Below are positions 1 to 54,680 of a stretch of 64,000 nucleotides of DNA, one piece after another. The DNA is taken from the NCBI RefSeq assembly GCF_030506325.1, contig NZ_CP120683.1, positions 6,080,501 to 6,144,500 on the forward strand, given 5' to 3'. This DNA is from Tunicatimonas pelagia (GTDB lineage Bacteria; Bacteroidota; Bacteroidia; Cytophagales; Cyclobacteriaceae). The notes under the pieces were generated by a model. That model saw nothing but the letters and a program-made list of their open reading frames with translations. It was not told where the DNA came from and made no database searches. Positions within the stretch are counted from its first letter, which is position 1; each line of letters starts with the position of its first letter. The translations under genes and the position numbers were made by a program.

Positions 1-344
1 ATGAGTAATGAGTAGTTGGCGGAGGCTGGGAGCACGGAGCAAGGCCGCTGCGGAGAACGGAGGTTAAAATCACTTTTTTTCGGAACCAACAAGATGCATC
101 TTTTTCTAATCTGTAATTTTCAATTTTTCTTACCTAATGCCTACTATGGACTGTCGACCGTGGACTATTAACCAATGCCCAAAACTCTGTAACCTTCAAC
201 CTGCTAAACCGTGCGACGGCCGCTTGTAACTCAATGACCAATACCCGTCGACGATGGACTATCGACCGTGGACTATTAACCAAACTTGTAGCTAAGTGAC
301 TGTGAACCGTCGACGATGGACTATCATCCGTGGGCTATGGACTA
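1..344. repeat. Intergenic heptad-repeat mosaic, locus A
   Basis: No gene is visible between 1 and about 477. Positions 1-14 are two copies of ATGAGTA. The perfect palindrome AGATGCATCT lies at 92-101. TNGACYR-type heptads run in phase at 147-174, 255-282 and 317-343. The stretch 92-238 is nearly identical, in reverse complement, to 21549-21712, apart from about 17 extra bases in the latter and a few substitutions. Positions 49-130 also match the reverse complement of 20735-20830. No open frame or transposase accompanies the copy, so it is a non-autonomous intergenic repeat. Nothing specific is seen at 345-477 apart from AT-rich upstream sequence for the next gene. Confidence 0.85.
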
Positions 345-513
345 ATTCTTCCTTGCCAAATTATCAGAAGAAGCTTTGGTGGTTAGATATCACTGTATAA
401 TCATCTCAAATTTATATTTTTCAGATATTTTGGGGCAAAGCGTTTCTATGTAGTAGGATTATTCTTATTTTGAGGTTTTGAATTTGCACAATCAAAGCCT
501 TAACGGCCGATCT

Positions 514-1689
514 ATGCTGTTACGATGTATTCTTTGGGGAGGTATTTTTTTTAGCAGTTCTTACTCCCTTATGGCTCAATCCATTTACGTTAGCAGTAAT
601 CAATTGCTAACATTAACTGACGATGCGGTTTTGTACACCTCAAGCGCAGTTATTAATGAGGGAGTGATCTTCAATGAAGGTACTATTCAGCTAGACGGCA
701 ACTGGAGTAATCAGCAGAGTTACAGTGGTAATGGCTGGTTACGACTTACAGGCTCTTCAGACCAAACCGTTCAGCATAATAATCAAGTGGTAGGCTCCTT
801 AGAAGCAAACGGTGGTGGAGCAAAAATAGTAGAGGGAAGTCTTTCTGTTAACGATACACTCAGTCTGATTAATGGTCATGTGATAGCGATCGCTCAAAAT
901 GTAATTCAACTAAACGAAAATGTTCAAGTCGAGAATGCCAACGATAACTCCTACATTCAGGGAACTGTGCGCTTTCGCGGAACGGGCTATCACTATCTTC
1001 CCATCGGTACCAGCACTGCTTTCCTACCAATCACCTTAGAAGATGTTACTGGAGTTAGCCCTTTGGTTGAAGTAGTTGCTTTCAGCGATCAGCAATTAGA
1101 GGTTGCCGGAGAAGCATTAGAAACTAAGGTGGTCAGCAATTATTGGACTATTACTAGTTTGGAAGGTCGCTACGACGGTTCGGTAGTTACCCTCACTGCA
1201 ACCCTTTCCGATAATTTTGATGATATTATCGGAGCAGTTGTCGTTGAGTCGGATAACTTAGACGGCTCTTTTAATAATTTGGGCCAGCGAAATCGGGAAG
1301 GAGATAGAACGAGTGGGTTGATAACCAGCGAGGCAATAGCGAATAAATCTATTGTAGCATTAGGACTTACAGCAGAGTACGTACTTGAGAATTCGGTAGA
1401 GATACCTTCTGCTTTCTCACCGATAGCCTCAGATGCAACCGATCGTAGCGTGCGAGTATATTCGGCCAGTCTACAATCCGAGGGCTTTTTGTTTACCATT
1501 TTTAACCGATGGGGACAAGTTGTGTATCAAACCAGCGACCTGCAATCAGCCCTCACCTCAGGTTGGGGTGGTTTAGATACCAACACCCGTCAACCGCTAC
1601 CTTCAGGAGTCTACCCTTACGTGTTACGGGGCATTTACGACAGTGGGCAAGCAGTAGAGAAGACGGGTTCCATTACGCTTTTCCGTTGA
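514..1689 (+). CDS. Secreted protein with type B T9SS sorting domain
   Basis: The protein has 391 residues from the ATG at 514; in-frame TTG codons at 478 and 484 are alternative starts, the second with GAGG 8 bases upstream. A signal peptide of about 22 residues ends near SLMAQS. The middle is beta-rich and low in cysteine with no recognised domain. From about residue 293 it matches the gliding-motility-associated C-terminal (CHU_C, type B) sorting domain: an IPSAFSP-like entry, IFNRWGQVVYQT, a GW-G pair, LPSGVYPYVLRG, and a final GSITLFR. Such domains direct export by T9SS. The next gene, porP/sprF, starts one base after the stop. PorP/SprF proteins are known partners of type B cargo, so this is probably a cargo and partner pair. 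Confidence 0.85.
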   Translation: MLLRCILWGGIFFSSSYSLMAQSIYVSSNQLLTLTDDAVLYTSSAVINEGVIFNEGTIQLDGNWSNQQSYSGNGWLRLTGSSDQTVQHNNQVVGSLEANGGGAKIVEGSLSVNDTLSLINGHVIAIAQNVIQLNENVQVENANDNSYIQGTVRFRGTGYHYLPIGTSTAFLPITLEDVTGVSPLVEVVAFSDQQLEVAGEALETKVVSNYWTITSLEGRYDGSVVTLTATLSDNFDDIIGAVVVESDNLDGSFNNLGQRNREGDRTSGLITSEAIANKSIVALGLTAEYVLENSVEIPSAFSPIASDATDRSVRVYSASLQSEGFLFTIFNRWGQVVYQTSDLQSALTSGWGGLDTNTRQPLPSGVYPYVLRGIYDSGQAVEKTGSITLFR

Positions 1690-1690
1690 T

Positions 1691-2740
1691 ATGCGACACA
1701 ATCGGACTCATATTGTTCTGATAGGACTTCTGTTCTTTGCTTCCGATGGGTTGACTCAAGAAATCCGGTTCTCCCAGTATCAAGCTGCTCCGGCCTACAT
1801 TAATCCGGCTAGTGTAGGAACTACGTTGCATCCGGTATTACGAGTTAATTCTCGGATTCAGCGGTTCGGAGTAGTTGCCTTTCGTACCGGCTACGCCTCA
1901 TTATCGCTGCCAATTTCCCTCAGCAGTACAAAAGAGTTGCCCATCGGAGGGGTTGGCTTAAATGTATTACAGGATGTAGCCGGAGAGAGTAGCGAGTTTC
2001 GCACTACAATTGCTCAATTATCAGCCGCCTATAACATTTACCTAAACCGCCGAGGTACTCAGTGGCTGAGTTTGGGTTTACAAGCGGGTTATCGCCAGGT
2101 GCGAGTAGACTACTCCCAACTTAATTGGCCTTCTCAACTGCGATACAATGGCTTCTCGGGCACTGGCCTACCTATTGAGAATGCTGAAAACCAGTTGGGA
2201 GCGCTAAGTATTAATTCGGGTCTGTTCTGGTCGTACGATGCTACCCGTAATCCACTTTCTGAAGCCCCTCCCGTTCGTCTGTACGCGGGGTTTTCGCTAC
2301 AAAACATTAATGAACCTACTTACAATTTCTTGTCAGCTTCACAAAGCTCACTGAATCTGGGATATTCGGCTCTTGGCGGGGCAGAATTCTGGATAAATGA
2401 TCGGTGGACGCTTGCTCCCGATGGTCTAGTTCTGTGGTACGAGCAGTGGTTTGCTTATCAGGCAGGAACTTCCGCCACGTACCATACCCAATACAGTACT
2501 CCATCGAATCCGGTACCGTCGCCGCTCCGCTTAACGGCTGGAACTTGGTATCGGGATGAATCTAGCTTGGTGTTTTTAGTAGGGATGGGAGGGAGAAAGT
2601 GGCAGGCCGCTTTATCCTACGATGCTAATCTGGCCACTACCCGAAGAGGAGTTTCCAATCAGTATGCTTTGGAATTATCTTTGCGGTACCAGTGGTTTGG
2701 CAACAATGCTCTCAAATCTCAATCCACGCCTTTGTATTGA
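1691..2740 (+). CDS. PorP/SprF family T9SS outer-membrane protein
   Basis: The protein has 349 residues, typical for PorP/SprF. After a short hydrophobic signal peptide it starts with EIRFSQYQAAPAYINPAS, the family's diagnostic FSQY...P...NPA entry motif. The rest alternates polar and hydrophobic residues as expected for a beta-barrel. PorP/SprF proteins sit in the outer membrane and take part in secretion or surface attachment of proteins with type B sorting signals. It lies tightly between the type B protein (1 base upstream) and the PorE-like protein (1 base downstream), so the three are probably one transcript. The specific paralogue cannot be named. Confidence 0.9.
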   Translation: MRHNRTHIVLIGLLFFASDGLTQEIRFSQYQAAPAYINPASVGTTLHPVLRVNSRIQRFGVVAFRTGYASLSLPISLSSTKELPIGGVGLNVLQDVAGESSEFRTTIAQLSAAYNIYLNRRGTQWLSLGLQAGYRQVRVDYSQLNWPSQLRYNGFSGTGLPIENAENQLGALSINSGLFWSYDATRNPLSEAPPVRLYAGFSLQNINEPTYNFLSASQSSLNLGYSALGGAEFWINDRWTLAPDGLVLWYEQWFAYQAGTSATYHTQYSTPSNPVPSPLRLTAGTWYRDESSLVFLVGMGGRKWQAALSYDANLATTRRGVSNQYALELSLRYQWFGNNALKSQSTPLY

Positions 2741-2741
2741 C

Positions 2742-5183
2742 ATGTTTGGTTTTCTCCGCATCCGAAATATTGATCTAAGGCTGCTTATTCTGTTAAGCCT
2801 GAGCATGGTTTCTATTAGCAGCTCTGGTCAAAATATCGCCATTCAGAACCCAGAGCAAAGCGGAGATCAGTATTTTTTAGCCGAACAGTATTTTCGGGCT
2901 GCTCAGTTTTATCAATTAGCTCTTAAAAACGATAGTAGTAATCATGAGCTAGCGATTAAGCTAGCGCATAGTGAGCGCAACCAATTTAATTACGTTAAAG
3001 CAGCTAAGTGGTATCAGTATGCTCAGCATATTTCCCCTGACTTTTCGGCAAAAGCGGCGTACTATCAGTCGTTAATGCTGAAAAATATTGGGCGATGCGA
3101 GGAAACGTACCTTTGGCTGGATAGCTTATTGAATTCGTCTCAACCAGAAGCACGAGCCTTGCAATGGGAGGCAGAACAACTGAAAAATAGTTGTCAGGAA
3201 TTAGCTTTAGCTGCTAGAAAGGTAGCGAGTATCACGGTGTTATCACTCGATTCTACCGTAAATTCCCCTAATTATGACTATGCTCCGGTTATAATGCAGC
3301 ATGATTCAATACTACTACTAACCAGTACCCGTTTTGCCGGAAAGCAGAAGGTTTCTTATCGATTTGGGGAAAATAACGCCAACTTTTTTGCGTACCGCTT
3401 ACAGGGAAGCCAGTTTACAGATACTAGTACTTTTGTAAGTGCCATCAATACCAAAGCCAGCGAAGGAGCCGGTTGCTACGTAGCATCCCGAAAGGAATTT
3501 TACTTTACCTACTGCTCCAATAACCAACCCTGTCAGATTTATTTCATTGCTTTTACGGGGAAGGGTTGGTCAGCACCTGCACCATTACCTCCTAGTGTTA
3601 ACGTGAAAGAAGCTGAAACTAAGCATCCTAGCGTATCAGCTTCCGGCGATACCTTATTTTTTGCATCCGATCGGCCAGGTGGCCGGGGAGGTTTAGATAT
3701 TTGGATGAGTATTCGGGCGGAAGAAAATCAGTGGCTATCGCCAGTTTGTCTGGATAGTTTGGTCAATTCTACTTACGATGAAGTTACGCCGTACTATCAC
3801 AGCCAAGAAGACCAACTCTACTTCGCTTCCGACAATCAGCGTGGTTTCGGTGGAATGGATTTATACTTGGTTTCCGAATTCTCTAATGCGAAATCAGGTG
3901 TTCGTAGGCATTTGCCAATGCCTATCAACTCCCCGGCCGATGATAGCTACTTAGTTTTAGGGCAGCAATCAGGATACTTAGCTTCTAATCGCGACGGTAA
4001 TTTTGATATTTATCAGTTCAAAAAAACAAAAAATCAACGGTGGGCGCAGTTTCTTTTGGGTATTCCGCCGCTGCTAACTAAACCAGTGGCTGATTTACTA
4101 ACGGCAGTACCTACTGATAAAATTCGTCGGGCCGACTACCTGAATTCGGAATTAAATGATTGGATTTGGGTAAATTCCGCCCAACAGAAAAGGCTTAGCT
4201 CTGGAGCTACTCGCTTCATTCTGAATTCGGATGTAAACGATATTCAAATGAAGCAATATCAGCAACAGCAGAAACGTAACGAGATGGCGCAGAACCTAAC
4301 AGTAGTAAGCACCATAATTAGCCCTAACGCCGATAGCACACTGATTTTAACGAGTTTCTCTACTGATTCTTCAACGGCAAACCTGACGAGCGTAGTTACG
4401 GGAACCGTTACCGTAAGCACCCCCCAGCAACCATTTGCCGAACAAATAATTGAACTGCGGGAAAGTGGAGGAGAACTGCTAAAGACATCTACCACCAATG
4501 CGACTGGCGAATTTAGGTTTGTGAACCTTCCGGCTAATAGCTCATACTACCTCGCATTAGCTTCTGCCGAAACGCAGGATACTATTAGCGTGAGCAACTT
4601 ACTGCTTCGGGCCGAACCGGAATATATTTTTTCACAGACGTTTGAGCCAATCTACTTTAACTTTAATCAGCACGAGTTACGCCCGGAGTCAGCTAAAGTA
4701 CTGGATGCTTTGGCTGAGTTTTATCAAGCCAACCCTGAAATATCTATTGAGATTAATGCTTTCACGGATAGTTTGGGTAACGACCTTTATAACTTGCTAC
4801 TGAGTAGAAAAAGGGGAGAAGCCGCGTTTGATTATCTAATTAATTCGGGAGTGGATCGATCGGCGTTGGCGATTAATGCTAACGGAGTATCTACAGCTTA
4901 TACCTCAACCAATGCTTACGTAAGCCAGCAACTGAACCGAAGGGTTGAGTTTGAAATTTTTGGATTGGAGAATCCACTTTCCCGCGAAGTGGCTACCAGA
5001 ATTTTACGGCCAAGTATTGATCTGGCTCAGCTTTTAGAAGGCACCCAAATGAGCTGGGAAGAATTATCTTCATTAAACGGGCGACCGTTGGATATACTTG
5101 AGCCATATAAACCCATCCGGATATACAAAAGCAAGATCGCCAATGACAACTCGTTATTTTACCAGATAATTGACATAAATTGA
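2742..5183 (+). CDS. PorE-like OmpA-family protein (TPR, PD40, CarboxypepD_reg, OmpA_C)
   Basis: The ATG at 2742 follows the porP stop by one base and opens a signal peptide; the frame is open further upstream, but only inside porP. The 813-residue protein has TPR-like helices (about 30-160), PD40/WD40-like blades with DTLFFASDRPGGRGGLDIW and LYFASDNQRGFGGMDLY (about 295-375), a carboxypeptidase-regulatory-like beta domain (about 550-606) and an OmpA peptidoglycan-binding domain (about 645-742) with the TDS...N...LS..R pattern and NRRVEFE. This order matches PorE, which tethers the T9SS to peptidoglycan. The last ~60 residues, with QLLEGTQMSWEELSSLNGR, look like a LysM-type repeat, a second possible wall-binding element. 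Confidence 0.88.
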   Translation: MFGFLRIRNIDLRLLILLSLSMVSISSSGQNIAIQNPEQSGDQYFLAEQYFRAAQFYQLALKNDSSNHELAIKLAHSERNQFNYVKAAKWYQYAQHISPDFSAKAAYYQSLMLKNIGRCEETYLWLDSLLNSSQPEARALQWEAEQLKNSCQELALAARKVASITVLSLDSTVNSPNYDYAPVIMQHDSILLLTSTRFAGKQKVSYRFGENNANFFAYRLQGSQFTDTSTFVSAINTKASEGAGCYVASRKEFYFTYCSNNQPCQIYFIAFTGKGWSAPAPLPPSVNVKEAETKHPSVSASGDTLFFASDRPGGRGGLDIWMSIRAEENQWLSPVCLDSLVNSTYDEVTPYYHSQEDQLYFASDNQRGFGGMDLYLVSEFSNAKSGVRRHLPMPINSPADDSYLVLGQQSGYLASNRDGNFDIYQFKKTKNQRWAQFLLGIPPLLTKPVADLLTAVPTDKIRRADYLNSELNDWIWVNSAQQKRLSSGATRFILNSDVNDIQMKQYQQQQKRNEMAQNLTVVSTIISPNADSTLILTSFSTDSSTANLTSVVTGTVTVSTPQQPFAEQIIELRESGGELLKTSTTNATGEFRFVNLPANSSYYLALASAETQDTISVSNLLLRAEPEYIFSQTFEPIYFNFNQHELRPESAKVLDALAEFYQANPEISIEINAFTDSLGNDLYNLLLSRKRGEAAFDYLINSGVDRSALAINANGVSTAYTSTNAYVSQQLNRRVEFEIFGLENPLSREVATRILRPSIDLAQLLEGTQMSWEELSSLNGRPLDILEPYKPIRIYKSKIANDNSLFYQIIDIN

Positions 5184-12575: not shown

Positions 12576-12616
<41 letters not shown>

Positions 12617-12707
12617 ATTTAAAATTGATCGCTGCTGAAACCAACCACCTAATGAATAATGATTGATGAATCATGATTATTTGGTGTGGGACACTGTACA
12701 GTAGACA

Positions 12708-12877
12708 ATGAGTAATGAGTAAAGCTAAATTCCGTACATCAAACTACGTTAACACCATAACACCATAACACTCCATTCTAACCCGCGAGACGGCCGCCTG
12801 TAATCTAATGACCAGGGACAAAGGACTAATAACAGTTGACTGTGGACTATCGTCGGTGGACTGTTGACCGTAGACTA
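12708..12877. repeat. Heptad-repeat mosaic, locus B
   Basis: Two ATGAGTA units lie at 12708-12721, a 'GACGGCCGCCTGTAA' module shared with loci A and D near 12790, and five in-phase TNGACYR-type heptads at 12843-12877 (TGGACTA, TCGTCGG, TGGACTG, TTGACCG, TAGACTA). An 8-bp repeat AACACCAT x2 lies at 12751-12766. The insertion sequence begins 11 bases after the last heptad. Confidence 0.8.
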
Positions 12878-12887: not shown

Positions 12888-14468
12888 GAGTGTATAACGA
12901 ATTGGGTGCAGAGGAAAAGCGAGTGGGAATGCAGAGATTCCCTTAATTTTGAGGTCTTCAACCACCATCAAAAAAACTCGCTATGGAAGTAAAGGAAGCA
13001 AAAATCAACCAGATAAGACAACACTTAGATCAGATAATAGCCCAAATGGATGCCCGAAGTAAAGAAGGAATGAGAATTCATCAGGTAGAGCGGTCTTTGT
13101 TTACCAGTTTATTGCAGTTAGGTTTTCAACTGTTAGAATACTACATTTTGAGTATACAACAGGTAGTCGCTGTTCAGGGGGTTCCCGTTGATCGTGCAGG
13201 GGAAAAGATGAAGAACACCGGGCTGCGTAGTCGGCCTTACCGAAGCATTTTTGGCCCGTTATCCATTGCCCGCCCCAAGTATTACTCAACCACTGGTAAG
13301 AGCTATTACCGGCTGGACGAAGCGTTGGGCTTACCCAAGAGCAACTATTCTTACGTATTGGATGATTGGTTAGGGTATGGGGCCACCGAGATGGACTTTG
13401 CCCAAAGTGCTGAGCAGTTGGAGCGCATCTTAGGTCATCCCCTAAGGGGTATGCAAAGCCAACGGTGTAGTTACAGGCTTTGCGAGCAAGTAAAAGACTT
13501 TTATGAGCAACAAGCCTGGGAAAACATAGAAGATGGTACTCATTTGAGCGTAGGCTTTGACGGTAAGGGGGTGCCCATTCGTCGCAGCGAAACTCAGCGA
13601 GCTGAGGAAAGTACGGCGGTTCGTCTGAGCAAAGGACAGAAGAAGGGGGTCAAAAAAGAAGCCACAGTAAGCCTGAGCAGTTCGTTTACCCCGCGGCCCC
13701 GGCAGGCTCAAGAACTCTTAGAGAGCTTGTTTTGCCCTACCCATGAGCCGCAGAAGCCCGATGGAGGGCATACCTGGCACGAGCACAAGCATCTACGAGC
13801 CTTTCTCTCAGACAAGGTAGGGGCCATCCGCTACGGGGTGGAAAACCTACTTCGGCGCGATGCTAGTGCAAAAAAGCCGATCATCGTTTTGATAGACGGT
13901 GACCGAGCCTTAGAAAAAGCAGTTCGGCAAGTGGTAGAAGAAAAGAAAGTTACCCATCGGGTAGAGGCCTACGTACTGGATTTTATTCACTTGCTAGAGT
14001 ACGTTTGGAAGGTGGCTAACGCTCATTGGGGGGAGAAGCATCCCAATCGTTTTGCTTGGGTGAGAAGCCAAGCCGCCTTGTTACTAGACAGCCAGCATGA
14101 TGAGGTACGACAGCAATGGCAAGTTATCTTGCAACAGGCTACCTTGTCTCAATACAAGCGTGACACTGTCCAACGAGCCATCACCTACCTGACCAACCAT
14201 CAGCATATGGTAGATTACAAAACCTATCTACAGCTAGGATTTCCTATCACCACCGGAGCGGTGGAAAGTGCCTGTGGACATTTTGTAAAGAGCCGTATGG
14301 AGAGAAACGGCATGCATTGGGGAAAACAAGGTGCGCAGAATATGCTCAACCTACGAGCCGTCAGAAAGAACGGCGATTGGGACAACTACCTACAAACAGT
14401 AGTCAAACACGAACAACAAGCTCTTTACCAAAAAGCTGCCTGAGTTACACCCTTTTTGTTATACACTC
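12888..14468 (+). mobile_element. Complete ISKra4-family insertion sequence
   Basis: The element is 1581 bp. The left end GAGTGTATAACGAATTGGGT is matched, inverted, by the right end GAGTGTATAACAAAAAGGGT, giving terminal inverted repeats of about 23 bases with a few mismatches. It is flanked by a perfect 9-bp direct repeat, AAAACAATT, at 12879-12887 and 14469-14477, a target-site duplication. It carries a single intact transposase. It inserted at the edge of repeat locus B, between tRNA-Leu and the enoyl-CoA hydratase gene. Intact ends, reading frame and duplication point to a fairly recent insertion. Confidence 0.92.
12983..14443 (+). CDS. ISKra4 family transposase
   Basis: The protein has 486 residues. 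The catalytic triad of the DDE fold can be placed: Asp in SVGFDGKGV, Asp in IVLIDGDRALEKAV and Glu in PITTGAVESACGHFVKSR. The GAVESACGHFVKSRMERNGM stretch with the following GAQNMLNLRAV is the signature of ISKra4-group transposases. The reading frame is intact, with no programmed frameshift needed. It lies wholly between the inverted repeats of the element. Confidence 0.93.
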   Translation: MEVKEAKINQIRQHLDQIIAQMDARSKEGMRIHQVERSLFTSLLQLGFQLLEYYILSIQQVVAVQGVPVDRAGEKMKNTGLRSRPYRSIFGPLSIARPKYYSTTGKSYYRLDEALGLPKSNYSYVLDDWLGYGATEMDFAQSAEQLERILGHPLRGMQSQRCSYRLCEQVKDFYEQQAWENIEDGTHLSVGFDGKGVPIRRSETQRAEESTAVRLSKGQKKGVKKEATVSLSSSFTPRPRQAQELLESLFCPTHEPQKPDGGHTWHEHKHLRAFLSDKVGAIRYGVENLLRRDASAKKPIIVLIDGDRALEKAVRQVVEEKKVTHRVEAYVLDFIHLLEYVWKVANAHWGEKHPNRFAWVRSQAALLLDSQHDEVRQQWQVILQQATLSQYKRDTVQRAITYLTNHQHMVDYKTYLQLGFPITTGAVESACGHFVKSRMERNGMHWGKQGAQNMLNLRAVRKNGDWDNYLQTVVKHEQQALYQKAA

Positions 14469-19138: not shown

Positions 19139-20620
19139 CTAGTCCAAATTTCGCAACTTTAAAATCAGATCGGTTTTCTTGGTAAATAGCTTCTCTTCTA
19201 AGCCTACCGGATAGCTATGAGGGTTTACAAATCGCTTTACGCCCCAGGGTAGTTCAGCCAAATTACGTAAGGTAGCACTTCGTATATCCGCTATCTTGGG
19301 TGACTCATAGGTAGCTGTTCCACCCCGAAATACGGGTACCAGTAATTCTTCAAAATCAGCCTCACCCGAATGTATAATCTTCTGGCGAGTGATATCCAAA
19401 GGGTCAATTATTTTATGCTTTTCTTCCAGCGTTTGCAAGGTATCATAAAGCATATCGGCTACTATTTGCCGCCTACTGTTTTTTTGGGTGTAAAACCGCC
19501 GTACTTGCTGAATGCCCGGGTTATTCACTTTAATAGCCTGCTCAGATAGTTTGATTTTATACTGCCACTTGCCGTCTTCTTTCAACGCAGCTAGTTTATA
19601 AACTGCCCCTAAAGCAGGTTGATCGTACGCTGTAACTAACTTGGTGCCAATGCCCCACACATCTATTTTGGCATCTTGCGTTCGTAGGCTGCTGATAATA
19701 TTCTCATCTAGATCGTTACTAGCAACAATCTTAGCATCAGGAAATCCGGCCTCATCCAACATTTTTCGGGCTTCAATACTCAAGTAGGCTAAGTCACCCG
19801 AGTCTATGCGTACTCCCAGTAGCTGTTTGCCTTTACTTTTCAGTATTTTTCCTACTTCAATCGCTTTTTTTACTCCTTCCAGCGTATTGTAGGTGTCTAC
19901 CAATAAAATGCAGTTGTTGGGCATAGCCTCAGCGTAGGCTTTAAAGGCACTCAATTCATCATCAAAAGCCATAATCCAACTGTGCGCGTGGGTTCCGCTA
20001 ACCGGGATTCCGAAGAGTTTGCCCGCTAAAACATTAGAAGTGGACGTGCCTCCGCCAATATACGCAGCCCTACTAGCGGCCAATGCTCCGTCAATACCTT
20101 GAGCGCGTCGTAATCCAAATTCTAAAACTGGTTCACCTTTGGCGGCCACATGAATTCGAGCGGCTTTGGTAGCAATAAGGGTCTGATAATTAATAATATT
20201 CAGTAGTGGCGACTCAATAAGTTGGCACTGTAGAATGGGGCCTTTCACCCGGATAAGTGGTTCGTGCGGAAATACGACTGTTCCTTCGGGAATGGCATCT
20301 ACATCGCAGGTGAACTTTAGCTCTTGAAGGTACGCTAAAAACGCTGGCTCAAACATAGGACGGCCATCTGGGCCTTCCAGAGTAGACAAATAGCTCAGGT
20401 CGGTATCGGTAAACTGAAAGCTCTGAAGCAGATCGATAACGTAGGAAAGGCCACAGTTCACGGAGAAGCCACCATTGAATGGGTTTTTCCGAAAAAACAG
20501 ATTGAAGACTCCGGTTTTCTCAGCCATACCCGTTTTCCAATAGCCATAAGCCATAGTAATCTGATAAAAATCAGTGAGCAAAGCTAAGGAGCTGGTGTAC
20601 AAGTTATTGGTTAAGTTCAT
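19139..20620 (-). CDS. pncB: Nicotinate phosphoribosyltransferase
   Basis: The protein has 493 residues. It begins with LALLTDFYQITMAYGYW, the NAPRTase signature, and has the conserved GTHAHSWIMAF segment carrying the histidine that is phosphorylated by ATP, and GVRIDSGDLAYLS from the barrel. It converts nicotinate and PRPP to NaMN in the Preiss-Handler NAD salvage route. The length and the C-terminal extension fit the bacterial/eukaryotic long form. It is followed at 3 bases by pyrD; both use or make PRPP-dependent nucleotides. Confidence 0.96.
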   Translation of the reverse strand: MNLTNNLYTSSLALLTDFYQITMAYGYWKTGMAEKTGVFNLFFRKNPFNGGFSVNCGLSYVIDLLQSFQFTDTDLSYLSTLEGPDGRPMFEPAFLAYLQELKFTCDVDAIPEGTVVFPHEPLIRVKGPILQCQLIESPLLNIINYQTLIATKAARIHVAAKGEPVLEFGLRRAQGIDGALAASRAAYIGGGTSTSNVLAGKLFGIPVSGTHAHSWIMAFDDELSAFKAYAEAMPNNCILLVDTYNTLEGVKKAIEVGKILKSKGKQLLGVRIDSGDLAYLSIEARKMLDEAGFPDAKIVASNDLDENIISSLRTQDAKIDVWGIGTKLVTAYDQPALGAVYKLAALKEDGKWQYKIKLSEQAIKVNNPGIQQVRRFYTQKNSRRQIVADMLYDTLQTLEEKHKIIDPLDITRQKIIHSGEADFEELLVPVFRGGTATYESPKIADIRSATLRNLAELPWGVKRFVNPHSYPVGLEEKLFTKKTDLILKLRNLD

Positions 20621-20681
20621 TTACCGATAAGAGGGTTGGTACGATTGCTGAATGGCTATTGGTTCGCAGCCCACGGGCATT

Positions 20682-20830
20682 GGTCAATAGTTAACAGTCC
20701 ACAGTCGATAGTCCACGGGCATTAAAAATTGAAAATTACAGACTAGAAAATAGATCATTAAATTAAAAGATGCATCTCGTTGATTTTGGAAAAAGGTGAT
20801 TTTAACTTCTGTTTTCCGTTCTCCGTCTTT
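20682..20830. repeat. Intergenic heptad-repeat mosaic, locus C
   Basis: Five TNGACYR-type heptads lie at 20682-20716 (minus-strand reading TGGACTA, TCGACTG, TGGACTG, TTAACTA, TTGACCA). They are followed by a module with the palindrome AGATGCATCT at 20768-20777. Positions 20735-20830 match the reverse complement of 49-130 in locus A, including 'GGAGAACGG' and 'TTAAAATCAC'. It fills the gap between adk and pncB. Confidence 0.8.
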
Positions 20831-20831: not shown

Positions 20832-21419
20832 TCAACCTGCTATATTTTGTAAGCGGGCTACCGCTTCTTTGATGCGCTCGTATATGTTATCAATACTACC
20901 TACTCCGTCGATAAGCTCGTAACGCCCCTGAGTTTCGTAGTAAGTAGCTACCGGTAGCGTTTCGGTCTGGTATACCTGCAAACGCGTAGCAATTTTAGCT
21001 TTATCTTGGTCGTCGGCTCGTCCGGAGGTTTTGCCTCGCTCAACAATACGCGCAATCAATTCGTCGTCAGGAACTGATAGGGCAATCATTCCGGTAATGG
21101 GGGTTTCCTTTTGGTTAAGCAGTTCATCTAAAGCTTTTGCTTGGGGAATGGTTCGAGGAAAGCCATCGAAGATGATGCCTTGCAGGTTATTCTCTTCTCG
21201 TAGTCTATCATCTACCATATCAATCACCAACTGGTCAGGTACCAATCGGCCTTCGTCCATAAACGCCCGCGCTTTTTTGCCCAACTCAGTACCTTCGCCT
21301 AAGTGCTTACGAAACAAATCACCCGTGGAAATGTGGGTCAATCCAAATTCTTCAATCAGTTTTTGGCTTTGAGTGCCTTTCCCGGCACCCGGAGGGCCAA
21401 AAAGTACAATATTTAGCAT
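20832..21419 (-). CDS. adk: Adenylate kinase
   Basis: The protein has 195 residues, the short form without an inserted zinc LID domain. The P-loop GPPGAGKGTQS is at residues 7-17, followed by the AMP-binding ISTGDLFRKHL and IFDGFPRTIPQAKALD. The short LID contains ERGKTSGRADDQD with the two arginines that contact phosphates. It interconverts ATP, ADP and AMP in the cytosol. It is separated from hpt upstream and pncB downstream by repeat loci D and C, which split what would otherwise be a continuous nucleotide-metabolism run. Confidence 0.97.
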   Translation of the reverse strand: MLNIVLFGPPGAGKGTQSQKLIEEFGLTHISTGDLFRKHLGEGTELGKKARAFMDEGRLVPDQLVIDMVDDRLREENNLQGIIFDGFPRTIPQAKALDELLNQKETPITGMIALSVPDDELIARIVERGKTSGRADDQDKAKIATRLQVYQTETLPVATYYETQGRYELIDGVGSIDNIYERIKEAVARLQNIAG

Positions 21420-21525
21420 AGAAATATTAGTTCAAAGTACAAATACAAAAAGCAAGTTTACGACTCTTGGTTCGTATTTGAAAATTTTTTGCCGAGATGT
21501 CGATTATTAGGCTGCTGATTGTCTT

Positions 21526-21815
<290 letters not shown>

Positions 21816-22349
21816 CTACTCCCCACTACTCAATTTATAAATATCGGGTAGGTTGCGTCCGAAACCGTCGTAGTCCAGTCCGTAGCCCACCACAAAGTCA
21901 TTGGGAATATGGAAGCCTGCGTAATCAATCTCGATCGAGTGCTTGAGAGCTTCTGGCTTGAATAATAAAGTAGCAATAGAGATGCTGGCCGGATGTTGAC
22001 TGCGGAGCTGCTTTAGCAAGAACTGAATAGTGTTTCCGGAATCAACGATGTCTTCAACAATAATAAGATGCCGCCCCTCGATAGGCACCTCCAAGCCAAT
22101 AAACTCTCGATGCTCACCGGTAGATTGTAGCTGCTCGTACGACTTAACTTTCACAAAAGTAATTTCTGAAGGGATAGAAATATGCCGGGCTAAGTCAGCC
22201 ATAAATATAAAAGCACCGTTAAGTACAGCGATAAAAATTGGATCATTTCCCTTCTGATCGCGATTAATGGTTTCGGCTAATTGGATAATCTTCTCCTGAA
22301 TAGATTGCTGCGACAAGTAAGGCTCAAAGTGTAGGTCTTTAATTTGCAT
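21816..22349 (-). CDS. hpt: Hypoxanthine phosphoribosyltransferase
   Basis: The protein has 177 residues, typical for bacterial HPRT. The PRPP-binding loop LIIVEDIVDSGNTIQ is intact, and LNGAFIFMADLARH and FVVGYGLDYDGFGRNLPDIY complete the type I PRTase fold and the purine-binding site. It salvages hypoxanthine (and guanine) to IMP/GMP. It starts 15 bases after the M42-like peptidase stop on the same strand. The stop codon abuts a 72-bp heptad array. Confidence 0.96.
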   Translation of the reverse strand: MQIKDLHFEPYLSQQSIQEKIIQLAETINRDQKGNDPIFIAVLNGAFIFMADLARHISIPSEITFVKVKSYEQLQSTGEHREFIGLEVPIEGRHLIIVEDIVDSGNTIQFLLKQLRSQHPASISIATLLFKPEALKHSIEIDYAGFHIPNDFVVGYGLDYDGFGRNLPDIYKLSSGE

Positions 22350-34953: not shown

Positions 34954-36617
34954 ATGTCTTTAACCATCCAAGCCTTCTTGGCAGTGCTCCCCATTTTAGT
35001 GGCGGCAGTGCTGCTTGTCATGTGGCGTTGGCCCGCCCAGAAAACCATGCCATTGGTGCTAGTCTCAACGGCGATTATTGCCTTTTTTGGGTGGGAGATG
35101 TCAGTACTCGATATAGTCGCCTCTACCATTCAAGGGTTGGTTATAACCTTCGATATTCTCTACATTATTTTCGGGGCTATTTTACTGCTCAACACCTTAA
35201 AATATTCAGGGGCAATCACCGTGATTCGGAACGGTTTTCTGAATATTAGTTCTGACCGCCGGGTGCAAGTGGTGATAATTGTCTGGCTATTTGGGGCATT
35301 TATTGAGGGGGCAGCCGGGTTTGGTACTCCCGCAGCCATTACCGCTCCTCTGTTGCTGGCACTGGGTTTTCCGGCACTGGGAGCAGTAATGCTGGGCATG
35401 ATGGTACAAAGTACTCCGGTAACGTTTGGGGCGGTAGGAACACCCATCCTAGTCGGGGTAACGGGCGGATTAGCTGGGCCGCAAGTAGAAGCGCAGTTGG
35501 CTGATTTGGGTATTACATTGCCGGAGTATATTCAGTTAGTTACGGTGCGGGCGGCTATACTCCACGCATTAGTGGGTACGGTAATGCCATTGTTTATGTG
35601 TACTATGATGACTCGGTACTTTGGCAAGAATAAGTCTTGGAAAGAAGGGCTTGCAATTTTTCCTTTTGCACTGTTTGGCGGCTTGGCGTTTACAGTGCCT
35701 TATCTGCTTACCGGAATATTTTTGGGCCCCGAGTTCCCTTCACTACTAGGGGCTCTGATTGGGCTAGCAATTGTCACTTCAGCGGCTCGCGCTGGATTTC
35801 TAGTCCCAAAGCAAGCTTGGGATTTTCCGCCTGAAGCCGACTGGCCAAAACACTGGATGGGCAAATTAAAAATACGGGTGGAGGATCTGAAAGAGGGAAA
35901 AATGAGTTTAGCCAAAGCTTGGTTACCCTACTTGTTGGTTGCTGCTCTATTAGTATTATCTCGTTTGCCTCAGCTTCCGATTAAAGGATGGTTAACCTCA
36001 GTTAAAATTCCGTGGAACGAAATTCTGGGTAGCAGTATCAGTGCGAGCAGCACTCCGTTGTATCTGCCAGGCACCATTTTAATTGTGGTCGTACTAATTA
36101 CGTACTTCTTGCACCAAATGCACGGAGGCGCACTTCGAGCCGCTTTTGCGGAGTCAGCTCAGCTCATTCTAGGAGCGGGTTTTGTTTTGATTTTCACTAT
36201 CCCGATGGTGCGGGTGTATATTAATAGCGGAATTAATGAGTCAGAAATGATGAGCATGCCCATTGCTATGGCCGAATGGGTAGCTCAAAATGTAGGTGAG
36301 GTCTGGCCACTGTTTGCTCCCTCAATCGGGGCACTAGGAGCTTTCATTGCCGGGAGTAATACGGTGAGTAACCTAATGTTTAGCTTATTTCAATTCGGAG
36401 TAGCCACCAGTCTAGCACTGCCATCGACCCTGATTGTAGCTTTACAAGCCGTAGGGGCAGCTGCCGGTAACATGATTGCTATCCATAATGTGGTAGCAGC
36501 TTCCGCTACGGTCGGACTGCTAGGTCAGGAAGGTAATGTGTTGCGGAAAACAATTTTTCCCACGGTATACTACGTAGCCTTAGTTGGATTACTGGGTTGG
36601 CTAGTCGTACAATTTTA

Positions 36618-36618
<1 letters not shown>
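34954..36618 (+). CDS. L-lactate/glycolate permease (LctP family)
   Basis: The protein has 554 residues with 12-14 predicted membrane helices, the length and layout of LctP/LldP/GlcA transporters. Characteristic segments are [38 protein letters not shown], and near the end [20 protein letters not shown] and [20 protein letters not shown]. The family carries L- and D-lactate and glycolate with protons. Downstream lie an aminotransferase of the glyoxylate type and a 2-hydroxyacid dehydrogenase, so glycolate is as likely a substrate as lactate. Heptad repeats begin on the last base of the stop codon. Confidence 0.94.
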
Positions 36619-36884
<266 letters not shown>

Positions 36885-36911: not shown

Positions 36912-38027
36912 ATGCATAACTATCCTGAACTAAATACCAGTCAAAGAATTTTAATGGGGCCTGGGCCTAGTGATGCCCACCCTCGCGTACTTAAAGCCAT
37001 GTCTACTCCTTTAATTGGTCACCTCGATCCGGAGTTTTTGACCGTTATGGATGAGATCAAAACCATGACGCAGGCTACCTTTCAGACACAAAATAGCCTC
37101 ACCTTTACGGTTTCCGCTCCGGGAAGTGCGGGTATGGAGACGTGTTTGGTGAACCTGCTGGAACCGGGCGACGAGGCACTAATTTGCGTTCACGGCGTCT
37201 TTGGTAACCGGATGTCTGATATTGTTGAGCGTTGCGGAGCTAAACTCATTCGGGTAGATGCTCCCTGGGGGCAACCGATTGATCCGCAGCAAGTACGCGA
37301 TGCACTAAAAACCTGTCAGCCTAAGTTGGTAGCCATCGTTCATGCTGAAACTTCTACCGGAGTACTTCAGCCCTTAGAAGAAATTAGTCAGATGACCCAC
37401 GCCGCTGGGGCACTGTTTGTGGTGGATGCTGTAACCTCCTACTGCGGCACCCAACTGAAAGTAGACGACTGGGGCATTGATGCCATTTATTCGGGTTCCC
37501 AGAAGTGCCTAAGTGCGCCTCCCGGCCTCTCTCCCGTTTCCTTTAGCGACCGGGCAGTGGCAGCACTAGACCGGCGTAAGACTAAGGTGCAAAGCTGGTT
37601 TTTGGATTTAACGATGGTGAAGAACTACTGGCAGGGTGCTAAGCGGGCATACCATCATACCGCTCCAGTTTCAGCTATGTTCGCTCTGCGGGAAGCTTAC
37701 CGACTGGTGTTGGAAGAAGGTTTAGAACAACGCTTTGAGCGTCACCACCGTAATCATCTGCTACTTCGAAACGGCTTGGAAGAGCTAGGCTTCACTTTTC
37801 TGGTAGACGAACCTTACCGTCTGCCAATGCTTAATGCCGTGAAGCTGCCCGAAGGGGTAGATGGTGTATCAACCCGCAAACGCTTGCTCGATGACTATAA
37901 TATCGAAGTGGGCGGCGGCTTAGGCGATTTTGCTGGAAAGATTTGGCGCATTGGCCTGATGGGTAATAGCTCTACACCTAATCACGTCAATATGCTGCTA
38001 GGTGCCCTCAAAGAAATTATGCGATGA
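36912..38027 (+). CDS. PLP-dependent aminotransferase (alanine/serine-glyoxylate type)
   Basis: The protein has 371 residues of the class V aminotransferase fold. It begins with [20 protein letters not shown] and [14 protein letters not shown], typical of alanine-glyoxylate and serine-glyoxylate aminotransferases. The Schiff-base lysine is K198 in [20 protein letters not shown], the standard AGT/SPT segment, and the Asp that pairs with the PLP nitrogen is in [10 protein letters not shown]. It would convert glyoxylate to glycine with alanine or serine as donor. The stop overlaps the start of the next gene by 4 bases, so it is translationally coupled to the dehydrogenase. Confidence 0.93.
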
Positions 38028-45570: not shown

Positions 45571-45573
45571 TTA

Positions 45574-46917: not shown

Positions 46918-46984
46918 AAACCACCGCTTTTGGCTGCCCTAGTTTATTGAGAGAGGTCACTAGAAGTAAAAGCATTGACTGGGC

Positions 46985-47165
46985 AGCTTGCGATTGGCCT
47001 GAAAGTTCAATTGTTGATGAGCTCAATGGTTGAATGGTTGTTAGTCTACAGTCCACAGCACTCGGTGCTCGATCTACAGTGCCTGGCAACTACTTCATCA
47101 ATCATTAGTCATTACCCCCAGCTCCCAGCCCTTCGCCAATTGTCATCAATCATTATTAATTGCTC
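46985..47165. repeat. Intergenic heptad-repeat mosaic, locus F1
   Basis: The gap between rseP and the dioxygenase gene contains, in reverse complement, the modules of locus F2 (51418-51640): 'GACAATTGGCGAAGGGCTGGG', 'CTGTGGACTGTAGACTA' and ATGA-rich segments. In-phase TNGACYR heptads lie at 47042-47055. F1 and F2 therefore form an inverted pair flanking the TDO-to-dapA block (47171-51360). Confidence 0.75.
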
Positions 47166-47170
47166 CCCAC

Positions 47171-51360: not shown

Positions 51361-51417
51361 TAGAAAAAAATTTTTGGCAATTACCGACGACGAGATGTAA
51401 ATTCCAAATCAACAGTT

Positions 51418-51640
51418 GATGAGTAATGACAATTGGCGAAGGGCTGGGTGTAATGAGTGATGAGTAATGAATAGTGAACAAGAGGCAGTGGCTAATGAAT
51501 GATGATTAATTCCCTAAACCTAACCTATCAATAATTTAGCAATCAGCAATTGAGCACTTCAAGCTTCTCAACCTGTGGACTGTAGACTATCGACTGTGGA
51601 CTAATAACCAATCAACAATTGAGCAATTGAACCATCGAGC
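51418..51640. repeat. Intergenic heptad-repeat mosaic, locus F2
   Basis: Contains in-phase heptads ATGAGTG, ATGAGTA, ATGAATA, GTGAACA at 51453-51480 and five units TGGACTG, TAGACTA, TCGACTG, TGGACTA, ATAACCA at 51576-51610. A 'GACAATTGGCGAAGGGCTGGG' module near 51430 is shared, inverted, with locus F1. It lies in the divergent gap between dapA and the AddB-like gene, so both genes' promoters must be within or next to it. Confidence 0.85.
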
Positions 51641-51652
51641 TATCTTTGACGC

Positions 51653-54598
51653 ATGAGTACATTTTTAGAAGAAGTTAGTCAGGCTATTCTTGAAAAATAT
51701 GCGACTGATTTGGAGCAGCTCACCGTAGTTTTTCCCAATCGGCGAGCCGGACTGTTTTTTCAGCATATTCTGGCTCATCAGGCAAAACAATCGGGGTGGG
51801 CACCCCGCATTATTACCTTTGAAGATTTTGTGAGCGAGCTTTCCGGGGCGCGTACTCCCGATCATCTTACGCTTTTGTTTCATCTTTATCAGATATTTAT
51901 CAGAGAAAGTAATAGCCAGGAGACCTTTGACCATTTTTACTTTTGGGGCGATTTGCTACTGCAAGATTTTGATGCGATTGACAAGGCACTGGTTAAAACA
52001 TCCGACCTATTCGCCAACCTCAAGGACCTCAAAGAACTAGAAGCGAACTACGATTATCTTACCGACGATCAGCGTAGCGCAATCACCCGATTTTGGAAAA
52101 GCTTTCAGCACGGGCAGTCTACTTCCTCCAAAGAGAATTTTTTACGATTTTGGGTAATTTTACACCGAGTGTATACTTCGTTTACTCAGTTTCTTCAGCA
52201 AAAAGAGTGGGCGTATGAAGGTCTGATGCTCCGTCAGCTAGCGGATCGCATTGATTCAGGAACGGTCAATTCTGCATTTCCACAACTCGCCTTCGTAGGA
52301 TTACACGCGCTGGCTCCAGCCGAAGACAAGCTGATAAAGTGGTTTGTAAAAGAGCAGCAAGCGGATGTTTTCTGGGACATGGACAGTTATTACGTTCGTC
52401 ACCCTCAGCATCAGGCAGGAACGTACTTCCGTCGTTACCAGCGGGATTCCCTTTGGAAAAAGACATTCCCTAACCCTTTGCCCAATTATTTTTTTACCCA
52501 ACCGCAGCGAGGCGTACAAGCGGTTGGTATTAATTTACACGTGGGACAGGCCAAGTACGCTGGGGCAATCTTGAGAGAAATCAGCCAGCAGCCTGGATTC
52601 ATTCCCGAAAAAACCGCGGTAGTGCTCCCAGATGAAAACTTGCTATTTCCGCTACTGCACTCGCTACCTCCTGAAATTAGGCGAGTAAACGTGACGATGG
52701 GCTATCCGGTACGAAGTACGGCGCTTTACAGCCTAATTGAACACGCCTTGAGCCTTCAGGAAGACAAACGTTATAATTCAACTACAGAGCAGTATGAATT
52801 TCACCATTCTCAAGTCCTGTCGCTGCTCCGGCATCCCTATCTTCGGCAGTTAGCCCCTAATGTGTCTGATGATCTGGGGCAGGATATTGAAAAACGTAAT
52901 CAAGTATACATAAGTGAGAAGCACTTACAGCAACACCCTCTTTATACCACTGTTTTTCAGCCTCTTACGCAAGCTGAAGACACGTTTGATTATTTGTTGC
53001 AACTGCTGCAACGCATTTATCAGGGAACTGATAGTTACGAAGAGTCTAAAGATCAATTAGCTGTACCATTGCTAGAGCAGGAATTGGTGTATCAATTATC
53101 TATTCAGGTAAACCGCCTAAAGGCACTGGCTCAAGAACATCAATTTACCCTAACTCCTCAGTTGCTAGTACGAATTTTCCGGCAAATGATGCAAGGGCTG
53201 CGACTTCCGTTTACCGGAGAACCGCTGCGAGGATTACAGGTGATGGGAGTATTAGAAACTCGAAATCTGGATTTTGATAACGTAATTATACTATCATTCA
53301 ACGAAGGAGTGTATCCTAAATCGGAGATGATTAATACCTTTATTCCGGGCAATTTACGACGGGGCTTCGGCCTATCTACGGTTGATGAGCAAGATGCTAT
53401 TTACGCTTACACATTTTACCGCTTGCTGCACCGAGCCAAGCGAGTTCACCTGCTGTATAATACTGCCGATAGCGTAGGGCAGCAGGGCGAGATGAGTCGG
53501 TTTTTGTACCAGTTACTGTATGAGTCTGACGCTAACGCGCATAGTTCGGTTCAGTTTCCTAATGCTCAGGGAGATTTTACGGTAAGCCGAAAAAATCTGG
53601 GAAATCCGGTACAAACTATTCCTCCCCAGCCAATTGCCATCCGGAAAGATACTGACGTACTCCAGCGATTACATCGTTATACCCACCAGGTTAATCAACC
53701 GCCCCGGCGTAGTCTCACTCCTTCGGCTCTGAATACCTATCTTGATTGCCGATTAAAGTTTTACTATAAATACGTGGTCGATCTGAAAGAGCCGGAAATT
53801 GTGCAAGAGGAAGTTGATCCGGCCGTGTTTGGTAACTTATTGCACCGCGCAATGGAGTTGGTTTACCAATCGGTAGTGACTGGGCAGAATCGTACGGTTA
53901 CAGTAGAGATTATTGAGGAATTGAAAAGTCAGCGACTAACTGAAGCAGTAAAATTAGCCTTTAAGGAGCATTATGGTCAGGTAGAGGATACTCATTTTAC
54001 ATTGGAAGGTCGGAACCTGATTGTATACGATATTGTGCTAAAGATGACTCGGCAGATTCTGGCAATGGACACGGCTTACGCTCCTTTTGATATTGTTAGC
54101 CTAGAGCGCGACAAGGGGAGAGGGTACTTCTGGGAAACTACCATTCGTGATGAGGAGGGCACAGCTACTACTGTGAGTCTACGGGGCATTATTGACCGAA
54201 TCGACCAAAAAGGTACTACCATTCGGGTGTTGGATTACAAAACCGGACGGGATGAAAAGCAGACAAAAGATTTAGCATCTCTATTTAATCGGGATGAAAA
54301 GTTGCGTAACAAAGCTGCTTTTCAGGCACTATTTTACGCTTTATTGTACCGCCAACATTCGGCTGAGGGGCAAATTGTGCCTGGATTAATCAATGCTAAA
54401 GACTTATTCAATCAGGATTTTGACTCCCGAATTTACGTCGGAAAAGAAGCGGTAAACGATTTTGAACCCTGGCAAGAACCGTTTATCCAAGAGCTCCATA
54501 CACTATTACTGGAGTTATTTAACCCCAATGCAGTATTTGATCAGACCGATGATTTACGAAAATGCTCCCTGTGCCCCTACGCCAAACTCTGTTACTGA
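51653..54598 (+). CDS. AddB-like PD-(D/E)XK nuclease
   Basis: The protein has 981 residues. The N-terminal part is an inactivated helicase-like region (LTVVFPNRRAGLFF with no Walker A, FDNVIILSFNEGVYPK) as in AddB. The C-terminal RecB-family nuclease (about 680-981) has FGNLLHRAMELVYQ, IIDRIDQKGTTIRVLDYKTG (catalytic Asp and Lys) and a four-cysteine [4Fe-4S] staple, with one Cys in LDCRLKFYYKY and three in the last residues KCSLCPYAKLCY. This resembles AddB of the AddAB recombination nuclease, which processes double-strand breaks. The AddA partner is not in the window. Confidence 0.88.
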   Translation: MSTFLEEVSQAILEKYATDLEQLTVVFPNRRAGLFFQHILAHQAKQSGWAPRIITFEDFVSELSGARTPDHLTLLFHLYQIFIRESNSQETFDHFYFWGDLLLQDFDAIDKALVKTSDLFANLKDLKELEANYDYLTDDQRSAITRFWKSFQHGQSTSSKENFLRFWVILHRVYTSFTQFLQQKEWAYEGLMLRQLADRIDSGTVNSAFPQLAFVGLHALAPAEDKLIKWFVKEQQADVFWDMDSYYVRHPQHQAGTYFRRYQRDSLWKKTFPNPLPNYFFTQPQRGVQAVGINLHVGQAKYAGAILREISQQPGFIPEKTAVVLPDENLLFPLLHSLPPEIRRVNVTMGYPVRSTALYSLIEHALSLQEDKRYNSTTEQYEFHHSQVLSLLRHPYLRQLAPNVSDDLGQDIEKRNQVYISEKHLQQHPLYTTVFQPLTQAEDTFDYLLQLLQRIYQGTDSYEESKDQLAVPLLEQELVYQLSIQVNRLKALAQEHQFTLTPQLLVRIFRQMMQGLRLPFTGEPLRGLQVMGVLETRNLDFDNVIILSFNEGVYPKSEMINTFIPGNLRRGFGLSTVDEQDAIYAYTFYRLLHRAKRVHLLYNTADSVGQQGEMSRFLYQLLYESDANAHSSVQFPNAQGDFTVSRKNLGNPVQTIPPQPIAIRKDTDVLQRLHRYTHQVNQPPRRSLTPSALNTYLDCRLKFYYKYVVDLKEPEIVQEEVDPAVFGNLLHRAMELVYQSVVTGQNRTVTVEIIEELKSQRLTEAVKLAFKEHYGQVEDTHFTLEGRNLIVYDIVLKMTRQILAMDTAYAPFDIVSLERDKGRGYFWETTIRDEEGTATTVSLRGIIDRIDQKGTTIRVLDYKTGRDEKQTKDLASLFNRDEKLRNKAAFQALFYALLYRQHSAEGQIVPGLINAKDLFNQDFDSRIYVGKEAVNDFEPWQEPFIQELHTLLLELFNPNAVFDQTDDLRKCSLCPYAKLCY

Positions 54599-54601
54599 AC
54601 A

Positions 54602-54680
54602 GTTAGCAATGAGTAATGAGCAAATTTACCAGGTTTAAGTTTGGAAAAACAATGCATTGAAAATAAACTCCGGTCTCCGT
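54602..54680. repeat. Intergenic heptad-repeat mosaic, locus G
   Basis: Three heptads GTTAGCA, ATGAGTA, ATGAGCA lie at 54602-54622, then a module shared with locus E (54634-54669, with AGGTTTAAGTTTGGAAAAAC), ending with about 1.7 copies of the CCGGTCT unit (54668-54679). It begins 4 bases after the AddB-like stop codon. Compared with locus E it is a copy whose array has almost no units. Confidence 0.8.

What the first reader, a model, noticed from the sequence alone, without database searches (positions are those of the whole stretch)
1..54680. A family of intergenic repeats built from 7-bp units at seven or more loci
Loci A, B, C, D, E, F1, F2 and G are all made of heptads kept in phase: GAGACCG-type, TNGACYR-type (for example TGGACTG-TAGACTA-TCGACTG-TGGACTA at 51576) and ATGAGYA-type. 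Unit order and orientation differ between loci, and they sit only between genes. Heptanucleotide STRR repeats are known from cyanobacteria, but this modular mixture of three heptad types in a Bacteroidota genome is not something I can name. The 7-bp period across unrelated-looking units suggests a common copying mechanism, perhaps a templated or slippage process.
Basis: partly seen in the sequence, partly recalled or inferred. Interest (0 to 1): 0.85.

Follow-up and report, generated by a model that had tools for sequence, protein, structure and literature searches.

The report
Seven-base repeats folding at gene ends
Gaps between genes in this bacterium carry many short repeats built in seven-base steps, which often begin at a gene's stop signal and fold into hairpins with a preferred orientation; such repeats belong to a known class, but this organisation gives clues to how they arise.

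Summary
In 1.2 Mb sampled from this genome, 72 intergenic stretches repeat with period 7 against 1.0 in shuffles; lags 4-6 and 9-13 give 0-4, lag 8 gives 17. Heptanucleotide repeats are a known class, and TNGACYR arrays occur in many Bacteroidota and Cyanobacteria.

The 5' arm has more G than C in 30 of 30 decided cases after dropping two self-matching arrays; other hairpins 67:54. TNGACYR hairpins break the G rule but keep their own polarity. (2) Array edges pile up at stop codons, and many arrays are in register with the stop: 30 of 598 genes have stops at two or more of +7, +14, +21, against 5-10 for other spacings 3-13. A 400-kb sample of a relative did not show this. (3) Hairpins persist at orthologous junctions; at one, a relative carries the hairpin built from a different heptad.

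Best reading: 7-nt slippage plus fold-back copying, seeded at gene borders. Function unproven.

The parts
1..350 (+). Composite locus: ATGAGTA heptads at 1-15 (continuing to the left of the window), then a dispersed core block, then TNGACYR heptads at 147-167, 255-275 and around 331-344
   Evidence: sequence; TNGACYR matches; copies of 94-238
12576..12616 (+). Perfect ACCGGAG array, 5.9 copies
   Evidence: ends against AATTTAAAATTGATCGCTG as at 21714-21742
12647..12725 (+). ATGA-type heptads with a partial inverted partner (ATGATTGATGAATCATGATTATT) and AATGAGT heptads at 12707-12722
12836..12877 (+). TNGACYR heptads
20675..20716 (-). TNGACYR heptads in the gap between ORFs 19139-20620 and 20832-21419; relative G001 has CTCCGGT-like heptads in the same gap
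21526..21640 (-). TNGACYR heptads at 21526-21546 and 21613-21640 within the dispersed core block
21743..21815 (-). Perfect GACCGGA array, 10.4 copies, abutting the stop codon of ORF 21816-22349; the gap is much shorter and lacks the array in G001 and G002
36616..36662 (+). ATGA-type heptads whose first unit is the stop codon of ORF 34954-36618 (TAATGAG TAATGAA TGAGGAT)
36734..36884 (+). Perfect TCCGGTC array, 21.6 copies, ending 27 bp before the start of ORF 36912-38027; pyrimidine-rich on the sense strand
46918..47170 (.). Convergent gap with TNGACYR pair at 47042-47055 (minus) and, after the minus-strand stop, ATGA heptads (about 47094-47160, minus)
51405..51603 (+). Divergent gap with ATGA heptads (51450-51483) and TGGACTG TAGACTA TCGACTG TGGACTA (51576-51603)
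54596..54679 (+). Heptads in register with the stop of ORF 51653-54598 (TGAACAG TTAGCAA TGAGTAA TGAGCAA), then a flank shared with 36676-36744 and a short CTCCGGTCTCCG

Best explanation
These are heptanucleotide repeat arrays of the known STRR/long-SSR class, made on the spot. A 7-nt step of slippage or duplication is seeded mostly at gene borders, above all at the stop codon, so the unit is often the stop codon plus the four bases after it. The growing array then often folds back on itself, and template-switch (snap-back) copying writes an inverted arm, giving an imperfect hairpin. Repeated re-alignment by multiples of 7 within and between arms homogenises the units, so the unit sequence can change as a whole while hairpin and period stay. 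Single arrays are arms without, or no longer with, a partner. Some arrays are then carried elsewhere by local duplication of longer blocks. Shown: period 7, gene-end anchoring, hairpins, polarity, persistence at orthologous junctions, and one whole-unit replacement. Inferred: slippage and fold-back as the agents, the order of events, and the reason for polarity (perhaps fold-back is favoured when the arm made first is G-rich).
For: Period 7 is far above other lags. Array edges lie within 7 nt of a stop in 10 cases (next bins 3, 1, 0; 39 arrays, 533 stop ends) against 2, 2, 2 on the start side. In 44 of 536 genes with a lag-7 run downstream, stops fall in the register of the gene's own stop at 60 of 264 positions, against 0.05-0.17 in other registers; with extra loci picked for TNGACYR, 86 against 40.1 (sd 9.0), reached in 0 of 5000 random-register draws. 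Periodicity falls off upstream of the stop (identity 0.24-0.35 before, 0.69-0.76 after; 31 genes). Inverted partners: 24 of 77 arrays score 11 or more against 8 of 150 control segments and 1 of 77 with shuffled flanks (17, 1 and 0 at score 14). Polarity: own ATGA 16:0, other units 14:0, Bacteroidota other units 14:2, Cyanobacteria 20:5; deduplicated run pairs: ATGA 23:0, TNGACYR 6:0 in the own genome and 6:0 in the genus loci. Orthologous hairpins. Whole-unit replacement CAGTCCA to CAGGAAA in both arms at junction H3 with the fold kept (z -8.5, -5.3, -5.0, -3.3).
Against: No strain-level data were held (one genome per species), so 7-bp steps were never seen happening. The G003 sample does not show the stop register (7 genes; z 0.7; 6 of 195 genes against 6 and 5 for spacings 3 and 4). 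Arrays that begin 8 nt or more after the stop show no register (11 against 12.7). 53 of 77 arrays have no inverted partner at score 11. TNGACYR hairpins go against the G-rich-5'-arm rule (1:7 in the picked own loci, 5:10 in cyanobacteria). Polarity is not predicted by simple fold-back without an extra assumption. Near starts the background is already C-rich (159:329), so that half of the single-array rule is weaker than it looks. The anchoring could partly come from arrays filling short gaps.
Confidence: 0.5

Rival explanations
1. Selected gene-border insulators: since 7 leaves remainder 1 on division by 3, a stop every 7 nt closes all three frames within 21 nt, and the hairpin acts in the mRNA (processing, stability or uncoupling of neighbouring genes). 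Selection keeps stops and pairing.
For: Stops in register after gene stops; more stops in 5' than 3' arms, 21:3 against 46:54 in other hairpins; 11 of 12 TNGACYR hairpins lie between same-strand genes, several 4 bp after the stop (three ortholog pairs among the 12); H3 hairpin kept through a change of units.
Against: Arrays are not enriched in convergent gaps (2 of 38; divergent 7 of 49, tandem 18 of 153), and hairpins with the same polarity sit in divergent gaps. Stop-ness is not clearly conserved: TGG 8 seen, 12.4 expected; CAG and CGG units are common; TAG/CTA is depleted in degenerate arrays (82 against 132.9). GGAGACC units have no stop. ACTGA-type hairpins in cyanobacteria carry the stop in the 3' arm.
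Confidence: 0.2
2. Plain polymerase slippage with a preferred 7-nt step, as proposed for long SSRs (Mrazek 2007, as cited in the passages seen); the hairpins and gene-end anchoring are by-products of purifying selection on genes.
For: Heptanucleotides are the commonest long SSR in many genomes (passages); perfect arrays of 10-21 copies in the window; lag 8, also not a multiple of 3, is the next most common.
Against: It does not predict inverted partners, their polarity or coordinated unit change in both arms.
Confidence: 0.17
3. Dispersed mobile element (MITE, REP or BIME-like) that carries heptads to many gaps.
For: A core block has four copies of at least 93% identity within 6.04-6.10 Mb and weaker ones elsewhere; gaps lacking the array in relatives.
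Against: Most arrays share no sequence beyond the unit; units differ between loci and phyla; the close copies are local, not genome-wide. I did not search for a transposase that could move them.
Confidence: 0.08
4. Binding arrays for a DNA- or RNA-binding protein that reads a 7-bp register.
For: The consensus TNGACYR recurs in two phyla.
Against: Units differ widely within one genome and can be replaced at one junction; no candidate protein was sought.
Confidence: 0.05

Closest known systems
Heptanucleotide STRR / long simple sequence repeats of bacteria (Calothrix heptamers; Mrazek 2007), known to me from recall and from passages in PMC4679880 and PMC4692102
   Same: Tandem 7-bp units, intergenic, high in Cyanobacteria; slippage with a 7-nt step proposed
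   Different: Here units are degenerate and of many sequences, about a third of arrays have an inverted partner, and hairpin polarity is fixed
TAACTGA repeats of marine Beggiatoaceae, Cyanobacteria and five Bacteroidetes (PMC4679880, passages only)
   Same: Intergenic heptads with stops in all frames; 13 sets overlap the stop of an upstream gene; Gramella and Aequorivita gaps also hold other heptamer repeats
   Different: One unit sequence, mostly before start codons and read as a translational signal; the authors note one inverted repeat
GGGAATC and GGGGA(C/T)T heptamer repeats of Xanthomonas and Nostoc (PMC4692102, passages only)
   Same: Degenerate heptads, mostly between aligned ORFs, on the sense strand within 50 bp of the stop codon and on the antisense strand before an ORF, some overlapping the stop, some inverted: the same strand rule as here
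   Different: Unit is G-quadruplex forming; under-represented between divergent ORFs, whereas here divergent gaps carry arrays too
ERIC, NEMIS and REP-type intergenic palindromes (recalled)
   Same: Hairpins between genes, sometimes within operons
   Different: Those are families of homologous elements with a fixed sequence; here the conserved thing is the 7-bp period

Membership tests
Heptanucleotide STRR / long SSR class | Tandem copies of a 7-bp unit beyond chance | tested here: met
Heptanucleotide STRR / long SSR class | Mainly intergenic | tested here: met
   72 intergenic against 21 in crude ORFs, intergenic DNA being about 9% of the sample
Heptanucleotide STRR / long SSR class | Copy number changes between strains | not testable with these tools
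   one genome per species held; paralogous copies of one block differ in array length (about 10, 16 and none)
TAACTGA repeats | Unit TAACTGA | tested here: not met
   units are others; ACTGA- and AACTG-type runs seen in cyanobacterial loci
TAACTGA repeats | Stop codon in every frame of the array | tested here: inconclusive
   met by ATGA- and TAG-type arrays, not by GGAGACC arrays
Intrinsic terminators | At gene ends, excluded from divergent gaps | tested here: not met
   divergent gaps carry arrays (7 of 49) and hairpins; transcript ends not testable
REP/MITE-like mobile element | Homologous sequence across copies with defined ends | tested here: not met
   only a local core block is shared; target duplications and transposase not tested

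The most novel reading that the evidence does not exclude
Bacteroidota and Cyanobacteria share a specific fold-back copying process that works in a 7-nt register, starts at gene borders (the stop codon plus four bases giving the first unit) and proceeds mainly when the arm made first is G-rich. It writes hairpins between genes whose sequence is rewritten as a whole over time while architecture and polarity stay, so that architecture rather than sequence is inherited.
Probability: 0.22. Interest if true: 0.85.

Novelty: new variant of a known kind. Interest (0 to 1): 0.6.

Why it matters
Why heptanucleotide repeats dominate long bacterial SSRs has been left at a guess about polymerase contacts. 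Anchoring at stop codons, arm polarity and whole-unit replacement with the hairpin kept are new handles on that question: each can be counted in any annotated genome and each separates plain slippage from fold-back copying and from selection. If right, a good part of the sequence between genes in two phyla is being rewritten by one process.

Tried and rejected
Terminators: rejected as the general role because divergent gaps carry arrays and hairpins. All-frame stop selection: kept as a rival; TGG depletion is not convincing (8 against 12.4) and TAG is depleted overall. Array inserted into a gene and supplying its stop: disfavoured because the period does not run upstream of the stop. In cyanobacterial loci boundary positions are spread over about -2 to +8, not sharp at one base. 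Loop lengths as multiples of 7: gaps of 19, 20, 21, 21, 45, 47 and 19, 23, 28, 33, 35, 65 show no such rule. Purine-rich 5' arm as a general hairpin property: rejected, other hairpins show none. Phylum-wide ATGA search: 103 of 296 genomes match, but in many the backwards control matches too (for example 75 and 72 in G170), so other heptad families are being counted and the number is no clean measure. Searching print for the unit strings gave one unrelated paper. Paper searches were on an open-access library only, so 'not in print' is not claimed.

Full report
What was checked. The window is G000:C1:6080501-6144500 of an unnamed 7.29-Mb genome in four contigs. I take it as Bacteroidota from the finding and the gene content; no tool named it. 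TNGACYR pairs: 17 against 0.06 expected.

Is the period special? In 20 evenly spaced 20-kb stretches, ten segments passed 21 of 28 matches at lag 7, all ten intergenic; other lags up to 13 gave 0-3. In all 60 stretches (1.2 Mb), at 19 of 28, lag 7 gave 72 intergenic segments (3.4 kb of 105 kb intergenic DNA) against 1.0 in Markov-1 resampling; lag 8 gave 17 and the other lags from 4 to 13 gave 0-4. G003, a genus relative, gave 7 against 0.3 in 400 kb. The phenomenon is genome-wide: TNGACYRx3 123 times, CCGGTCTx3 115, ATGA heptads 286, each with backwards control 0.

How widespread? TNGACYRx3 occurs in all four genus members searched and in 10 of 59 genomes overall. By my reading of titles 57 are Bacteroidota, 35 Cyanobacteria and 20 others or unclear (list). 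In the flanks of the first 80 of these, lag 7 again leads in Bacteroidota (26 intergenic, 11 in ORFs) and Cyanobacteria (49 and 2).

Hairpins. Of 77 arrays in the sample plus window, 24 have an inverted partner of score 11 or more within 100 bp, against 8 of 150 random intergenic segments and 1 of 77 with shuffled flanks; at score 14 the figures are 17, 1 and 0. After removing overlaps, neighbouring ATGA runs within 120 bp are 23 inverted in one polarity and 0 in the other in the own genome. TNGACYR runs are 6:0 in the own genome and 6:0 in the genus loci; three pairs among these twelve are orthologs, so nine loci are independent. In the collection TNGACYR is 20:5; by phylum, within 60 bp, Bacteroidota 8:2, Cyanobacteria 4:0, other 2:1.

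A polarity rule across unit families. In heptad hairpins of the sample plus window the 5' arm has more G than C in 31 of 32 decided cases (33 in all). After dropping two arrays that only match themselves the figures are ATGA 16:0 and other units 14:0 with one tie. Other intergenic hairpins give 67:54. Bacteroidota loci give 19:2 and cyanobacterial loci 21:6 for non-TNGACYR hairpins. TNGACYR hairpins do not follow it: 1:7, 8:3 and 5:10. Single arrays follow a matching rule in the own genome: nearest a stop, G exceeds C on the sense strand in 19 of 20; nearest a start in 0 of 13. The background is 214:237 and 159:329, so the start half is partly background. In Bacteroidota loci the figures are 13:4 and 1:10; in Cyanobacteria 17:11 and 8:13, not significant. 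For Xanthomonas the same strand rule is in print (PMC4692102, passages).

Gene-end anchoring. Of 598 genes with at least 24 bp downstream, 30 have stop codons at two or more of +7, +14, +21 from their own stop; other spacings from 3 to 13 give 5-10, spacing 14 gives 19. Without the window it is 27 of 572. Repeats anchored on the stop (first three units at least 62% identical) are 25 of 598 at period 7, 8 at period 8 and 0-3 at the others tested. In collection loci they are 41 of 227 (Bacteroidota) and 42 of 174 (Cyanobacteria), against 8 and 4 at period 8; these loci were picked for a heptad whose reverse strand often carries TAG, so they are biased. Examples: TAATTCG repeated from a stop in Calothrix, TGAGTGG in a Bacteroidota MAG, TAGAAAT TAGGTTT TAGGGAT in the own genome. 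In G003 the register is absent or too weak to see. Array edges lie within 7 nt of a stop in 10 cases and of a start in 2 (39 arrays; 533 stop ends and 591 start ends). Upstream of the stop, lag-7 identity is 0.24-0.35. In the window, ORFs 34954-36618 and 51653-54598 show the register.

Persistence and whole-unit replacement. Hairpin H1 (G000, L213) lies at the orthologous junction in G003 (L226); in G002 another gene sits there, and the G001 contig ends there. H2 (L195, a gap between ORFs that look by eye like susC and susD) is at the same place in G002 (L227) and, diverged, in G003; the G001 contigs end there. H3 (L212; two genes that look by eye like glycosyltransferases) is present in G003 and G001 with the same family. 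In G002 the same gap carries CAGGAAA GCGTAAA CAGGAGA in the 5' arm and a complementary 3' arm. Folding keeps the hairpin in all four: -40.3, -33.0, -32.1 and -30.5 kcal/mol, z -8.5, -5.3, -5.0 and -3.3; for G002 two of 200 shuffles fold as well. The ATGA junction of L266 is heptad-bearing in G000, G001 and G003, with z -1.3, -6.1 and -2.7, so pairing is weak in G000; G002 differs. The ATGA junction of L045 is shared with G001. Against this, window gap 21419-21815 has no array in G001 and G002, and 12576-12616 is absent from G001 and G003. So some arrays are old and some recent. I chose the orthology loci for their hairpins, so no rate follows.

A dispersed block. Window 21560-21745 has copies of at least 93% identity only at 6.04-6.10 Mb, with weaker ones elsewhere. 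These copies carry GACCGGA arrays of about 10 and 16 units, or none. Longer blocks are therefore duplicated locally and their arrays differ afterwards.

Mechanism. Period, anchoring and hairpins are shown. Slippage with a 7-nt step, fold-back copying and homogenisation between arms are inferred. They account for coordinated change of both arms, which slippage alone does not. The reason for polarity is a guess. Selection for closed frames or for an mRNA hairpin remains possible, but conservation of stops was not shown and divergent gaps carry the same hairpins.

Standing. This is the known heptanucleotide repeat class. I did not meet polarity, the stop register across many units, or whole-unit replacement in the passages I read (PMC4679880; PMC4692102), but I read no paper whole, and most subscription papers are not in the library.

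Noticed in passing
window 12750-12771: An 8-bp array (TAACACCA); period 8 is the second intergenic excess in this genome (17 against 1.7).
   Followed up: partly
window 12983-14443: ORF with a Pfam UPF0236 match, absent from the orthologous gap in G001 and G003; I recall this family as linked to insertion sequences, not checked.
   Followed up: partly
L195:604-2220 and L227:567-2114: The H2 hairpin lies inside the N-terminal part of an ORF that looks by eye like SusD, so a 21-bp repeat may be translated.
   Followed up: no
G000:C1 about 5.3-6.2 Mb: GACCGGA arrays cluster in this part of the chromosome (listed places; the list was cut), while TNGACYR arrays are spread.
   Followed up: no
L266:9741-9830 and related gaps: A GC-rich insert like GACGCGGCGCGGA sits inside ATGA heptads and recurs in relatives.
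   Followed up: no
window 36676-36744 and 54611-54679: A second shared flank (84% identical) beside heptads, unrelated to the first core block.
   Followed up: no
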